A stretch of DNA of 57,844 bases, from assembly GCF_000285275.1 (NCBI RefSeq), contig NZ_CADO01000009.1:1-57844 (forward strand). The letters are read 5' to 3'. The notes beneath the pieces are model-generated. The model was given only the letters and a program-made list of their open reading frames with translations. It did no database searches and was not told the origin of the DNA. This DNA is from Acetobacter pasteurianus subsp. pasteurianus LMG 1262 = NBRC 106471 (GTDB lineage Bacteria > Pseudomonadota > Alphaproteobacteria > Acetobacterales > Acetobacteraceae). Every line of letters begins with the position of its first letter. Positions within the stretch are counted from its first letter, which is position 1. The position numbers and the translations under genes were made by a program. Shown piece by piece: positions 31,201 through 37,850 of the stretch.

Positions 31201-31677
31201 TTACCGCACATACACCCGCACAACCGGTTTCGTCACGGAAGAATCCGGCATAGCGGACATTTCCACCTGCGCTTCCGATGCTCCGGCGTTAATCATTTCC
31301 TGCAACACGGCGCGGCCATCACCCTGCACCAAGTTCATCAGGGAAGATTGTTCCGCATCTGCATTGGCCTGTGGCGGCACCAGACATCTGACAACAAACA
31401 GAACATCAGGTTTGCGGCTAAGGGCAAGACGCGTGATCTGATCAACCGGTCCTTCCCACTGCGATGCAGGGGTACCTGCTGCCAGCTCAATCAACGGCGG
31501 CACAGGCGGCGGACCCGGCGGCGGCGGCGGAATATACGGCTTGGGTGCCACACCTGCGTTCGGGTTGAAGGTTTTTTGATCAACCAGCTTGCAGCCTGTC
31601 ATGCCAACCAGCACGCACCCCGCAACAACAACACGGAGAAAAGACCCTTTTTCTATCACTTGGGAAACGGGCAGCAT
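31201..31677 (-). CDS. Small proline-rich lipoprotein of unknown function
   Basis: A 158-residue protein with a lipoprotein signal (VVVAGCVLVGMTGC; the lipidated Cys near residue 29) followed by a proline-rich linker containing PYIPPPPPGPPP, then a globular part ending SVTKPVVRVYVR. I do not recognise the family. ATG 31677 has GGAG 12 bases upstream; codons before it belong to an open extension. It lies upstream of hemA on the same strand, but about 100 bases separate them. Confidence 0.72.
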   Translation of the reverse strand: MLPVSQVIEKGSFLRVVVAGCVLVGMTGCKLVDQKTFNPNAGVAPKPYIPPPPPGPPPVPPLIELAAGTPASQWEGPVDQITRLALSRKPDVLFVVRCLVPPQANADAEQSSLMNLVQGDGRAVLQEMINAGASEAQVEMSAMPDSSVTKPVVRVYVR

Positions 31678-31834
31678 AACAGGACAGTTCTCCACCAGAA
31701 CGTGTAATGGCAATTCAACATGGCTTTACAAAGCCATTTCTGTTTCTTTCGCGCTCTCCTGCACCGTGTGCAAGTCCTTTGGGCCTTTTCTTACCCTTTT
31801 CAGCAGCAAAATTTCGTTCCACACTCTCTTTCCA

Positions 31835-33766
31835 ATGGCACAGGCCACACTCATAGAGCATCCATTTACCTCCCCTGCGACAGCCCTGCCTGCGCAGGAT
31901 ACAGTTGTGCTGCGCCTATGTGCGGCGGCTCGCCTGCTTTTAGGGAAAGCCAGAAATTCTGCGCATCTGGCGCTACTGCAAACACTTTGCCTGCCTGTTA
32001 CGGCACTATGGTGCCGCGTGCTGCGTTTTGATCCAGCACACCCCGATTGGCCGGACCGGGACAGATTTGTTGTGCCCTCCGCCACCCTGCACCCTTTATT
32101 GCAGGCCATGCTGCACCTTAGCGGCACTTACGCGTTTTCCGAGTCCCCTTTGGAATATGGCATGCATCCGGGCGTAGAAACCGCCCCTGGCCCTGCTGGG
32201 CAAGGCATCGCAGCTGCGGCTGGTATGGCACTTGCAGAACACCTTCTGGCAAAACGCTATGGGCGTTCATTGGTCAACCACCGGACATGGGTGCTGGCGC
32301 GCGATGGAGATTTGGCCACTGGCGTTGCCATGGAAGCCGCGCAGCTTGCCGGTCGTTTTGGCCTGACCCAACTTGCTGTTCTCGTCAGCCCCACGCCGGG
32401 AGCAGATAGAACCGAGTTCTCAAACTCTCTGGCGCGTTTTAGCGCATCAGGGTGGAGCATCCGTAAAGTAGATGCATCACAGTTAAGCGCCATCAACGGT
32501 GCTCTAGCGGCCACCTTGCGGGCTAAAAAACCAACACTTATTGCCTGCATGCCGCCTGAAAGCCCGCAAACCTTTCGTCCTCAACCATGCCTATCACCAG
32601 AAGAGGAACTGACAGGCCCGTGGAGCCCAACAGCCCGACGCGGCGCCACAGCATACCGTTCATGGCTTAAACGGCTGGCCAGACATCGCCTGCGCACAGC
32701 TTTTGAGCGTGAAACTGCTAACACCTTACCGAGCTTGCTCATGGAGGACTGGAGCCGGCTGTGCCGCCGCGCCATGCAGCCCACACATCAGGCCTCCACC
32801 CAGCAAGCCGCCATAACCAGCCTGCATACGCTTTCTGCCCTTTTGCCAGAGCTTACAGTTTTAACCGCAACATCTGCATTGCCTCGCACCTCTGCGGCAG
32901 CGCACATTCAACCAGACTGGCCATGTAATATTCAGGAACATGGTATGGCCGGAATGTTAAATGGCATGTCCTTGCATGGCGGCATTTTACCTTGCGGCAT
33001 TGCCAGTATGATTACGGTGGACCGTATGCGCGCCGCACTCCGTATGGCTGCGCTGATGCGCCAGAAAATTATCTATCTTTTAACAGATGATGGGCTGGCC
33101 CTCAGCCATGATGGTGCAAGCTGGCAACCGGTGGAACAACTTGCCAGCCTGCGCGCCATGCCGCATCTGGCCGTTTTTCGGCCCGCAAACGCACAGGAAG
33201 CCTTTGCCTGCTGGAAGGCAGCCATCCGCTGGCAATCTGGCCCGGCTGTTATCATGCTCTGCCCCAACCCGCCCGAACATTCCTATGCTGTGCCCATGCA
33301 GGGATCTGCCGCACGCGGAGGATACATTCTGCACGGCAGTGCTACGCGGCATGTCACCCTTATGGCTTCTGGCCCAGAAGTGAGCATTGCATTGGAGACG
33401 GAGCAGCTCTTGCGGCAACATGGCGTGCAGGCCGCTGTTGTTTCCATTCCCTGTTGGGAAGTGTTTTCCAACCAACCAGAAGCTTACAAAACTGCCATTC
33501 TGGGCACAGATGTGCTGCGTGTGGGAATTGAAGCTGCCTCTGGCTTTGGATGGGAACGCTGGCTAGGCAGCCAAGGATTTTTCGTTGGTATGGATGATTT
33601 TGGCGTATCCGCACCTGCCAACGCGGTGTATGAACGTTTTGGCATTACTGCCGGAGCGATTTGTGCGCGGGTTTTAAAACACTTGCGTACATCCGGCGCC
33701 ATAGAAGAAAGGTTCCTTCAGGCGCCATCACCTACCTCCCGCCAGCAAGAGCGGGAGCCGTTGTAA
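31835..33766 (+). CDS. Transketolase homologue with lost catalytic residues
   Basis: A 644-residue protein that aligns over its whole length with transketolase: PDRDRFV, GVETAPGPAGQGIA, EHGMAGMLNGMSLHGG and QPVEQLASLRAMPHLAVFRPA. Against E. coli TktA (from memory) many active-site residues differ: His66 of SNGHGS is Thr84; the GHPE motif is missing; GDG is RDG (156-158); the metal-ligand segment DDNGISID is VSPTPGAD; His461 is Asp418; His473 is Trp430. The catalytic Glu is kept (Glu368). Canonical sugar transfer seems unlikely. It precedes gap and pgk with a 52-base gap, the place of a true tkt in related bacteria. ATG 31835 lacks a good ribosome binding site. Confidence 0.85.
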   Translation: MAQATLIEHPFTSPATALPAQDTVVLRLCAAARLLLGKARNSAHLALLQTLCLPVTALWCRVLRFDPAHPDWPDRDRFVVPSATLHPLLQAMLHLSGTYAFSESPLEYGMHPGVETAPGPAGQGIAAAAGMALAEHLLAKRYGRSLVNHRTWVLARDGDLATGVAMEAAQLAGRFGLTQLAVLVSPTPGADRTEFSNSLARFSASGWSIRKVDASQLSAINGALAATLRAKKPTLIACMPPESPQTFRPQPCLSPEEELTGPWSPTARRGATAYRSWLKRLARHRLRTAFERETANTLPSLLMEDWSRLCRRAMQPTHQASTQQAAITSLHTLSALLPELTVLTATSALPRTSAAAHIQPDWPCNIQEHGMAGMLNGMSLHGGILPCGIASMITVDRMRAALRMAALMRQKIIYLLTDDGLALSHDGASWQPVEQLASLRAMPHLAVFRPANAQEAFACWKAAIRWQSGPAVIMLCPNPPEHSYAVPMQGSAARGGYILHGSATRHVTLMASGPEVSIALETEQLLRQHGVQAAVVSIPCWEVFSNQPEAYKTAILGTDVLRVGIEAASGFGWERWLGSQGFFVGMDDFGVSAPANAVYERFGITAGAICARVLKHLRTSGAIEERFLQAPSPTSRQQEREPL

Positions 33767-33818: not shown

Positions 33819-34841
33819 ATGGCAGTCAAAATCGCTATCAATGGCTTCGGACGCATCGGCCGCCTTGTGCTGCGCGGCATTATTGAAAGCGGACGCACCG
33901 ATGTTGTGCCGGTAGCTATCAATGATCTGGGCAGCGTAGAAGCCAATGCCCATCTGTTAAGCTATGACAGCGTGCATGGTCGCCTGCCTGCTGATATCCG
34001 GGTGGATGGCAACAAAATTATTGTCACCGCCAACGGTCGCACATGGGACCCCATTACCGTTTCTGCGGAACGTGATCCCTCCAAGGTTCCTTTTCAGGGC
34101 GTTGACGTGGCCATGGAATGCACGGGCCTGTTTACCTCCAAGGAAAAAGCACAGCCGCTGCTTACAGCTGGCGCACGTAAGGTGGTTATTTCCGCACCAG
34201 CTACAGATGTGGATGCCACCATTGTTTACGGTGTGAACCAGGATGTACTGACACCGGACATGACCGTGATTTCCAATGCATCCTGCACCACCAACTGTCT
34301 GGCCCCAATGGCCAAGGTGCTGGAAGATGCGTTCGGGATTGAACGTGGCTACATGGTCACCATTCATTCCTACACGGGTGATCAGCGCACGGTAGACACG
34401 CTGCACAAGGATCTGCGCCGCGCCCGCGCAGCTGGCCTGAACATGATCCCGACCTCTACCGGTGCAGCCCGCGCTGTTGGTCTGGTTCTGCCACAGCTTA
34501 AAGGCAAGCTGGATGGCACCGCCATTCGTGTTCCTACCGCCAATGTTTCCATCGTTTCTCTGGACTTTGTGCCTAAAAACACACCGGCTTCAGTTGAAGA
34601 CGTCAACAACGCCATCAAAGCCGTTGTCGACTCCGGCAAGATGAAAAACGCTCTGGCGTATTCTGATGCACCGCTCGTCAGTTCTGATTTCAACCATGCA
34701 CTGGCATCTTCAACATTCGATGCAACACAGACCGCATTGGTAGATGGTGGCAAACTTGTTCGTGTCTGCTCCTGGTACGATAACGAATGGGGCTTCTCCA
34801 ACCGCATGTCTGATACAGCAGCTCTGTTCGGAAGCCTGTAA
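33819..34841 (+). CDS. gap: Glyceraldehyde-3-phosphate dehydrogenase, type I
   Basis: A 340-residue dehydrogenase. The NAD-binding motif is [13 protein letters not shown], the catalytic Cys is in [13 protein letters not shown], and the closing [12 protein letters not shown] is typical. It oxidises glyceraldehyde 3-phosphate to 1,3-bisphosphoglycerate. ACGGAG lies about ten bases before the ATG. The stop overlaps the pgk start by one base (TAATG), so gap-pgk are coupled. In acetic acid bacteria lacking a full upper glycolysis this serves pentose-phosphate outflow and gluconeogenesis. Confidence 0.97.
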
Positions 34842-36064
34842 TGGCAGAACTTCCTTTCAGCACGCTGGATACGCTTGACCCCAAGGGCAAACGTATTCTG
34901 CTGCGTGTGGACCTGAACGTGCCCATGAAGGACGGGAAGGTTACAGACGAAACACGTATTGAACGTGTTGTGCCCACCATTCGCGAACTGGCTGAAAAAG
35001 GCGGGCGGGTTATTCTGCTCAGCCATTTTGACCGGCCAAAAGGCAAGGTGGTGCCGGATATGTCGCTCCAGCCCATTGCTACGGCTCTGGCCACAGCTTT
35101 GGGGCGGCCTGTCAGCTTTGCGCATGATTGCATTGGCCCGGATGCCGAAGCCGCTGCGCGCTCCATGCAGGATGGAGACATCCTGCTGTTGGAAAACACG
35201 CGCTTTCAGCCGGGTGAAGAAAAGAACGATGCAGGCTTGTCCGCAGCCCTCGCCAGCCTTGGCGATGTGTATGTGAACGATGCCTTTTCTGCCGCGCACC
35301 GTGCACATGCTTCTACCGCTGGCGTTGCAGCCCATCTGCCATCTTATGGTGGCCGATTGATGCAGGCAGAGCTGGAAGCTCTATATGCTGCGCTGGAAAA
35401 TCCGGAACGGCCTGTTGGGGCTATTGTGGGCGGCGCAAAAATTTCCACCAAACTTCAGCTGCTTGAAAATATGCTGGCAAAGGTGGACATGCTGGCTATT
35501 GGTGGCGCCATGGCCAACACGTTTTTGGCTGCCAAGGGCCTACAGGTTGGCAAATCCCTGATCGAAAAAGACATGCTGGATACAGCACGCACGATTATGG
35601 AACAGGCCAAAGCCAAAAACTGCGATCTGATCCTTCCGGTAGATGTTGTGATTTCGGAAGATTTTATTGCAGGAGCACCCACACAGGTTGTGCCTGTAAC
35701 GGCCATTCCTGATGGCTGGATGGCACTAGACGTTGGACCAGAAACCGTAAAGCTGCTGCAAAGCAAACTTGCTGGTTTGAAAACGCTGGTCTGGAACGGG
35801 CCTTTGGGCGTGTTTGAACTGCCTCCGTTTGATGAAGGCACAAATGCTGTTGCTCAGGCTGCTGCCCAACTGACGCAGGAAGGCAAACTGAAAACCGTAG
35901 CCGGTGGTGGAGATACTGTTTCCGCCCTGCGGCATGCGGGTGTGCTGCATAAGATGTCTTATGTATCCACCGCAGGCGGGGCTTTTCTGGAATGGCTGGA
36001 AGGCAAGGTGCTTCCCGGCCTGACAGCTATCAGCACAACACTGGAAAAAACCCTGCCAATCTAA
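34841..36064 (+). CDS. pgk: Phosphoglycerate kinase
   Basis: A 407-residue kinase transferring phosphate between 1,3-bisphosphoglycerate and ADP. It has [11 protein letters not shown] at the N-terminal substrate site, [23 protein letters not shown], and the C-terminal nucleotide-site motif [12 protein letters not shown]. It is coupled to gap and ends at a strong terminator. Length and motifs are ordinary. Confidence 0.97.
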
Positions 36065-36090: not shown

Positions 36091-36125
36091 AAAACCACTT
36101 CAGACCTTGTGTCTGGAGTGGTTTT
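36091..36125. terminator. Terminator behind gap-pgk
   Basis: A near-perfect 15-bp stem (36091-36105 with 36111-36125), 5-base loop, eight T on the plus strand. It abuts the stop codon of the convergent transporter gene. Confidence 0.93.
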
Positions 36126-37080: not shown

Positions 37081-37755
37081 CTATTCGCGCCGCAAAACCT
37101 GATCTGTCAGAAAAGAAGAAAGCTTATTTGCCACAAACTCTTCTTTTAGCGCGTGCTCATCATATTCATTCCGCACCCATTCAAGAAAAGGCATGCGACC
37201 TTCTCCCTCCGCCTGATAATGCAGGAAAAATGCATCCAGAATACCTGTGCGAGAACTCCGGAAATGCCCGTATTTCCAAGACAGTTCCTTAAGCGCCTGT
37301 TGGGCAGATCCACCTTCAAACAGCACCACCAAGCCAGACGCCAAACCGGCGCGATCTGCGCCCGATTTACAATGCATCAGCATTGGAAAATCCAGCTTCT
37401 GGTACATATCCGCAAAACGCAGAATTCTATCCTTATGGGGCGCACCACGGCTTTCAAACGCCATATCTACATGGTGCAAACCAAGGCCGCGTGCAGCATT
37501 GCGAGAGAGGGCATCAGACCCGCATTTTCTATGCCCACGTAAGTTCACCAGCGTACGCAAGCCCAACCGTTCCATGGCTCTTTTCAAGCGCGCTGGGGTG
37601 GGGTGGTTACACCGATATACTTTGCCCGGAATAACCGCGTGAAAATTCGTCCACATCAGGCGGAAAATGGCGTGATCTACAAACAGGCTGTCAGTCCAGG
37701 CCCGCGCACGGCCAGATGATGAAGAAAGATGGCCGTCAAACACGAAAAACCTCAC
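37081..37755 (-). CDS. Protein tyrosine/dual-specificity phosphatase family protein
   Basis: A protein of about 224 residues with the CX5R phosphatase signature HCKSGADRAG near residue 135 and an upstream LVNLRGH segment typical of the tyrosine-phosphatase fold. GKVYRCNHPTPARL at the start of the domain resembles bacterial dual-specificity-like enzymes. The substrate could be a phosphoprotein or a phosphorylated lipid. The start is uncertain: TTG 37761, GTG 37755 and a later GTG preceded by GTGAGG are possible. It lies between the transporter and sdhB. Confidence 0.8.
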   Translation of the reverse strand: MRFFVFDGHLSSSSGRARAWTDSLFVDHAIFRLMWTNFHAVIPGKVYRCNHPTPARLKRAMERLGLRTLVNLRGHRKCGSDALSRNAARGLGLHHVDMAFESRGAPHKDRILRFADMYQKLDFPMLMHCKSGADRAGLASGLVVLFEGGSAQQALKELSWKYGHFRSSRTGILDAFFLHYQAEGEGRMPFLEWVRNEYDEHALKEEFVANKLSSFLTDQVLRRE

Positions 37756-37850
37756 TACCAAACAGATCGTCTTCTAGCAGGTTTCATGTTCCACCTTCCT
37801 TTGCTGCCGTCAATGCAGAAGGGCAGGAAGATGAAGTATCTTCGCTTGGG

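What the first reader, a model, noticed from the sequence alone, without database searches (positions are those of the whole stretch)
31835..33766. Transketolase homologue in the gap-pgk cluster has lost most catalytic residues
The protein aligns end to end with transketolase but lacks the SNGHG His, the GHPE motif, the first Gly of GDG, the metal-ligand Asn segment (VSPTPGAD instead of DDNGISID), and the His of THDS and PTHQP (Asp418 and Trp430). The general acid Glu368 is kept. A full-length, intact, conserved-looking frame beside gap and pgk argues against a decaying pseudogene. It could be a regulatory or structural partner of glycolytic enzymes, or a thiamine-diphosphate enzyme with a new reaction.
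Basis: partly seen in the sequence, partly recalled or inferred. Interest (0 to 1): 0.75.

Follow-up and report, generated by a model that had tools for sequence, protein, structure and literature searches.

The report
A dead transketolase kept by selection
Acetic acid bacteria carry, beside two glycolysis genes, a relative of the enzyme transketolase that has lost the parts needed for catalysis yet is kept intact by natural selection, and the same loss seems to have happened more than once in related bacteria that have another gene for the real job.

Summary
Window 31835-33766 (+) encodes an intact 643-aa protein with the three-domain transketolase fold, but 15 of 22 listed invariant cofactor/substrate residues are replaced or missing. 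A complete transketolase sits elsewhere in the genome, in a pentose-phosphate operon. Across Acetobacteraceae the slot upstream of gap-pgk mostly holds a true transketolase: of 151 genomes classified (200 sampled), 79 keep 16/16 key residues, 36 keep at most 6, 5 are intermediate, and 31 have no such gene before gap. All 36 degenerate genomes have another transketolase-type locus. Degeneration arose more than once. The degenerate genes are not simply decaying: dN/dS is about 0.08, and losses concentrate in the active site. Codon adaptation is poor, unlike gap and pgk, so it is probably a scarce protein rather than a stoichiometric partner of them. Best reading: a ThDP-free pseudoenzyme formed in place where another transketolase does the catalysis, kept for a non-catalytic (probably regulatory or binding) role. 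The pseudoenzyme reading is well supported; its role is inferred. Human TKTL1 is the nearest known analogue. At least one published reconstruction counts what looks like this gene as a working transketolase.

The parts
31835..33766 (+). pseudo-transketolase, 643 aa, complete reading frame
   Evidence: AlphaFold2 model mean pLDDT 86.2, pTM 0.88
32075..32089 (+). PSATL (res 81-85) in place of the SNGHG His motif
32156..32194 (+). YGMHPGVETAPGP (res 108-120); GHPE His (H100) missing, G114-P115 kept
32297..32326 (+). ARDGDLATGV (res 155-164), former GDG motif; E160 lost
32384..32407 (+). VSPTPGAD (res 184-191) where the Mg2+ ligand Asn185 segment lies in transketolase
32636..32689 (+). RRGATAYRSWLKRLARHR linker (res 268-285), conserved in the family
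32936..32938 (+). E368 = E. coli E411; Glu in 74 of 99 degenerate homologues
33023..33025 (+). R397 in place of Y440 of the ThDP pocket; Arg in 95 of 99 degenerate homologues
33083..33139 (+). TDDGLALSHDGASWQPVEQ (res 417-435): H461->D418, S463->G420, H473->W430 (Trp in 86 of 99 degenerate homologues)
33449..33568 (+). C-terminal domain motifs PCWEVF (539-544) and GFGWERWLG (570-578)
33819..34841 (+). gap, glyceraldehyde-3-phosphate dehydrogenase
   Evidence: named by recognition of the sequence, no family scan run on it
34841..36064 (+). pgk, phosphoglycerate kinase
   Evidence: named by recognition of the sequence, no family scan run on it
36091..36125 (+). terminator-like hairpin after pgk (15 pairs); none was listed on the + strand in the 52-bp gap between the pseudo-transketolase and gap
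   Evidence: consensus scan only; 12 sites found, 6.1 expected in shuffles
31201..31713 (-). conserved upstream neighbour, 170 aa, no Pfam match

Best explanation
The gene is the in-place descendant of the true transketolase that precedes gap-pgk in most Acetobacteraceae. Where another transketolase does the catalysis (here one in a pentose-phosphate operon), this copy lost its ThDP, metal and substrate sites but kept the fold under purifying selection. It is a pseudoenzyme, probably made at low level, that most likely works by binding a protein or small molecule (a regulatory or moonlighting job the ancestor already had). Supported here: loss of the site, intact frame, selection, in-place origin, repeated origin, and presence of a second transketolase. 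Inferred: no activity, low abundance, the order of events, regulatory role. Confidence is about 0.9 that it is a selected pseudoenzyme and about 0.45 for the regulatory/binding role; the figure below is for the whole statement.
Against: No functional datum exists. The gene is dispensable to the family: 31 of 151 genomes have none before gap. Some degenerate copies are short (497-544 aa in G080, G043, G178), which fits ongoing decay in those lines. Better retention of the C-terminal domain also appears in the intact type-B enzyme. The gene's own tree puts most degenerate copies together. Intact slots nested among degenerate ones could also be regained genes. The cross-table treats related genomes as independent. 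In the three intact loci that could be compared, the slot gene also had lower codon adaptation than hemA, so that comparison does not separate the classes; the one with pgk does.
Confidence: 0.6

Rival explanations
1. It pairs with the genome's true transketolase as a heterodimer and changes its activity or direction, as reported for human TKTL1.
For: Transketolase is a dimer with sites at the interface (recalled). TKTL1 lacks ThDP residues, and heterodimers with TKT are reported in a paper of which I saw passages (PMC12525540). Fold kept, E165 kept in the window. All 36 degenerate genomes have another transketolase-type locus.
Against: Codon adaptation is lower than that of the true tkt (0.44 against 0.577), so it may be too scarce. 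No type-B partner was found in 5 of 36 degenerate genomes, which have another kind.
Confidence: 0.25
2. It is a structural partner or scaffold of Gap and Pgk.
For: Gap lies within about 200 bp downstream in 78 of 80 named loci; no terminator-like site was listed in the 52-bp gap.
Against: Codon adaptation far below gap and pgk, and below pgk in 49 of 49 AAB loci, against 6 of 21 intact loci. Persists without gap-pgk nearby in Acetobacter sp. AN02. Thirty-one of 151 genomes have gap without it.
Confidence: 0.1
3. A decaying pseudogene.
For: Redundant beside a second Tkt; no gene in the slot in 31 of 151 genomes; three copies are only 497-544 aa.
Against: Full frame; omega 0.036-0.123 over 26 pairs with 2dlnL 42-386 against omega=1; 166 columns at least 90% conserved among 95 core sequences.
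Confidence: 0.03
4. A ThDP enzyme with a new reaction, or a cofactor-free enzyme in the old pocket.
For: Arg397 (95 of 99) and Trp430 (86 of 99) are new, nearly fixed residues in the old pocket; Glu368 often kept.
Against: Most metal and diphosphate residues gone; E411 is Val in 19 of 99, and D469 is kept in only 62% of the core.
Confidence: 0.05

Closest known systems
Transketolase (TktA/TktB, EC 2.2.1.1)
   Same: Three-domain fold and end-to-end homology; same slot beside gap-pgk as the intact family members
   Different: Cofactor, metal and substrate residues mostly lost; NCBIfam equivalog score far below cut-off
Human TKTL1
   Same: Transketolase relative that has lost ThDP residues while keeping the scaffold; described as a non-catalytic regulatory protein (PMC12525540, passages)
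   Different: TKTL1 lost them with a 38-residue deletion; here many substitutions plus short gaps, in bacteria, in the resident gene's own place, apparently more than once
E. coli TktA-MarR interaction
   Same: A transketolase with a reported regulatory binding role (PMC3905653, passage)
   Different: There the protein is an active enzyme (recalled); no MarR link was tested here

Membership tests
Transketolase enzyme | Three-domain transketolase fold | tested here: met
Transketolase enzyme | ThDP and Mg2+ binding residues | tested here: not met
   H66, H100, L116, E160, N185, I187, H261, F437, Y440 lost; G114, D155, G156, E411 kept
Transketolase enzyme | Substrate phosphate/hydroxyl residues | tested here: not met
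   H100, R358, S385, H461, R520 lost; D469 kept
Transketolase enzyme | NCBIfam TIGR00232 equivalog score | tested here: not met
   351 against 682 bits
Transketolase enzyme | Catalytic activity | not testable with these tools
   needs purified protein
Pseudoenzyme (selected, catalytically dead homologue) | Catalytic residues lost while fold and frame are kept under purifying selection | tested here: met
Pseudoenzyme (selected, catalytically dead homologue) | Absence of activity shown by assay | not testable with these tools
   needs purified protein
Pseudogene | Relaxed selection or broken frame | tested here: not met
   omega 0.054 for the window pair, 2dlnL 300
TKTL1-like modulator | Heterodimer with an active transketolase | not testable with these tools
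   no complex prediction was offered
TKTL1-like modulator | Loss of the site by one internal deletion | tested here: not met
   many substitutions and short gaps instead

The most novel reading that the evidence does not exclude
The gap-linked transketolase of Acetobacteraceae has a hidden second, non-catalytic job. Each time another transketolase was at hand, catalysis was outsourced and the resident gene was stripped of its active site but kept for that job, several times independently. The lineage would be a natural experiment that separates the two functions.
Probability: 0.35. Interest if true: 0.78.

Novelty: new variant of a known kind. Interest (0 to 1): 0.58.

Why it matters
If right, it gives a graded, repeated series of enzyme-to-pseudoenzyme conversions at one fixed gene position, with intact, half-eroded, eroded and missing states in related genomes. 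That makes a possible non-catalytic role of transketolase testable in bacteria. It also affects metabolic models: A. pasteurianus 386B APA386B_1521, whose number adjoins gap 1520 and pgk 1519, is counted as a transketolase (PMC3751514); that it is the degenerate slot gene follows only from the locus numbers. G. xylinus CGMCC 2955 is credited with four transketolases (PMC5908849); whether one of them is the slot gene was not shown.

Tried and rejected
C-terminal domain as the retained functional part: 14 of 15 degenerate genes keep its canonical-invariant residues better than the other domains, but the intact type-B enzyme shows the same direction (0.82 against 0.67 and 0.69), so this was dropped as evidence; in the window the gap is wider (0.84 against 0.55 and 0.54). 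Counting origins on the gene's own tree: most degenerate copies fall together (3 label changes, at least 2 forced), so GAP+PGK was used as an organism proxy. Both trees are 'quick' searches. A riboswitch or other Rfam family near the gene: none at gathering thresholds. The promoter scan gave 1 hit against 3.0 in shuffles. Literature: ten searches listed no paper that by its title or abstract start deals with a degenerate transketolase in acetic acid bacteria; this covers only the held open-access library, several listings show only the top 10-20 of many papers, and one search used one artificial phrase. Papers of which I saw passages: PMC5908849, PMC12508126, PMC12525540, PMC3751514, PMC12651746, PMC3905653, PMC6558740; the rest were search listings only.

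Limits of the counts. Slot regions were held for 160 of the 200 sampled genomes, mainly because the gap listing is capped: 162 places, 126 with a transketolase-type gene. Dropped before the 151-genome table: 6 fragments (G103, G165, G148, G007, G155, G093), G004, G052 and G128 (no clear call), and two extra gap copies of G143. 'Absent' means no tblastn hit at E 1e-5 in the stretch before gap (2.6 kb or more; 0.66 kb, to the contig end, in G049), not in the whole genome. Two absent genomes (G029, G116) were counted as having type B although their match is only 47-48% identical, no closer than an intact slot Tkt. For G107, G035, G036, G059 and G132 adjacency to gap was not checked or not possible; in G117 the slot gene is not beside gap. 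G009 and G132 are cut by contig ends. Intactness of the other transketolase was judged by score and open frame, not by residues. The type-B list was typed by hand. dN/dS: 26 close pairs out of 152 candidates were run, each locus used at most twice, so pairs are not independent; one pair (dS 0.05) fell out of the medians; two control fits failed (PGK L051-L057, GAP L043-L046); one canonical pair had saturated dS (G023-G187), and several others have dS above 1. Active-site test: genes were called degenerate by 16 such residues, so it is partly circular; of the 5 intermediates, 3 show the excess at p below 0.05 (G078, G092, G151) and 2 do not (G064, G108); the 15 genes are not 15 lineages. Codon-adaptation control: the 21 'intact' loci hold one intermediate (L092) and at least one near-duplicate pair. 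The 'core' set of 95 was chosen by Arg at position 440, so its invariance there is circular; the independent figure is 95 of 99. Catalytic residue roles and domain borders are recalled.

Full report

A true transketolase exists. The genome has a 700-aa Tkt with all 16 checked residues on another contig, next to a transaldolase-phosphoglucose isomerase fusion, a 6-phosphogluconate dehydrogenase-like gene, a HAD hydrolase and 6-phosphogluconolactonase. I call this type 'B'.

Relatives. The protein search found 3846 homologues and listed the best 120. Of these plus the query, 99 are degenerate (at most 8 of 16 key residues), 6 intermediate and 16 intact. Named degenerate ones include Acetobacter, Gluconacetobacter, Komagataeibacter and Lichenicoccus; loci from Novacetimonas and Endobacter add to these. 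Among the 99, Arg replaces Tyr440 in 95 and Trp replaces His473 in 86, while Glu411 remains in 74.

Genomic position. In 78 of 80 named loci gap begins within about 200 bp after the gene, whether it is intact or degenerate; L107 has gap 1.2 kb away and L112 has none. Intact copies occupy the slot in Acidocella and in MAGs named Rhodopila, for example. So this is the resident gene changed in place. In Acetobacter sp. AN02 (L112) the gene is kept as a 626-aa frame upstream of a long frame that I read as aconitase (recalled, not searched), with no gap or pgk in the locus.

Census. Of 200 sampled family genomes, 160 had a slot region held and 151 could be classified: 79 intact slots (16 of 16 residues), 5 intermediate (11-15), 36 degenerate (at most 6) and 31 with gap but no transketolase-type gene before it. 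Type B is present in 7 of 79 intact, 5 of 5 intermediate, 31 of 36 degenerate and 31 of 31 absent, two of the last by a 47-48% match only. The remaining 5 degenerate genomes have another Transketolase_N locus. In this sample, erosion or absence is seen only where another transketolase-type gene exists. The Fisher p of 2e-28 ignores relatedness.

Repeated origin. On a GAP+PGK tree of 81 genomes, starred branches force at least 7 changes of the degenerate label (against all other states, absent included), and 9 changes are needed between degenerate and intact-or-intermediate slots. Changes are not all origins; regain of an intact gene would also count. Holding intact plus intermediate slots as one clade is rejected. 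Genus codes agree: g97 and g99 each hold intact and degenerate members, and g92 holds 12, 11 and 4 of 16 residues in three genomes. Against many origins, the gene's own tree places most degenerate copies together: 3 label changes, at least 2 forced. I ascribe that to long branches, which the tool itself warns of.

Selection. Pairwise codon-model omega (my own implementation, F3x4) has median 0.076 (25 pairs with dS above 0.05, of 26 run; range 0.036-0.123), against 0.027 for gap, 0.038 for pgk, 0.030 for the hemA-type neighbour and 0.10 for the small upstream gene; the window pair gives 0.054, with 2dlnL 300 against omega=1. Two other degenerate lineages give 0.055 (dS 1.7) and 0.082 (dS 2.5); nine intact pairs give 0.025-0.077, leaving out one saturated pair. 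In 15 of 15 tested degenerate genes outside the core set the invariant active-site residues were lost in excess over other invariant residues (p 9.2e-4 or lower); the window gives p 0.01, and of five intermediates three give p below 0.05 and two do not. The test is partly circular, since genes were called degenerate by 16 such residues. Still, uniform decay should have struck the rest equally, and for instance G199 lost 13 of 22 active-site but 31 of 244 other invariant residues.

Abundance. With weights from 21 ribosomal protein genes of the same genome, codon adaptation is 0.44; three of the 36 other mechanical frames in the window score lower. Gap is 0.70, pgk 0.625 and the true tkt 0.577. 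I see no Shine-Dalgarno-like purine run before the start, while gap has one. With gap as reference in each locus, the slot gene scores below pgk in 49 of 49 AAB loci, against 6 of 21 intact loci and 7 of 9 other degenerate or intermediate loci; below hemA it is in 40 of 47 AAB loci but also in 3 of 3 intact ones. Base composition differs between these groups, so this is indirect.

Interpretation. The best-supported reading is a pseudoenzyme. The fold is selected and most of the ThDP site is gone, so a protein- or ligand-binding role is likely. Low predicted abundance speaks against a scaffold for Gap and Pgk. Precedents are human TKTL1 (passages of PMC12525540) and E. coli TktA binding MarR (passage of PMC3905653). 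The actual partner is not known.

Noticed in passing
window 31201-31713 (-): A 170-aa proline-rich protein without any Pfam match is conserved between the hemA-type gene and the gap slot, also in most of the fetched genomes that have no transketolase-like gene there.
   Followed up: partly
L112 / L193 (Acetobacter sp. AN02; G117 looks like the same genome): The pseudo-transketolase is kept as a full frame with no gap-pgk nearby and has one of the longest branches in the family.
   Followed up: partly
L257, L276, L265 (G080, G043, G178): Degenerate slot genes of only 497-544 aa, perhaps on the way to loss.
   Followed up: no
L140, L141, L203 (genus code g92): Three genomes of one genus code hold 12, 11 and 4 of 16 key residues: a graded series.
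   Followed up: partly
window 37081-37761 (-): Small tyrosine-phosphatase-like protein (Y_phosphatase3, E 4e-7) near the cluster.
   Followed up: no
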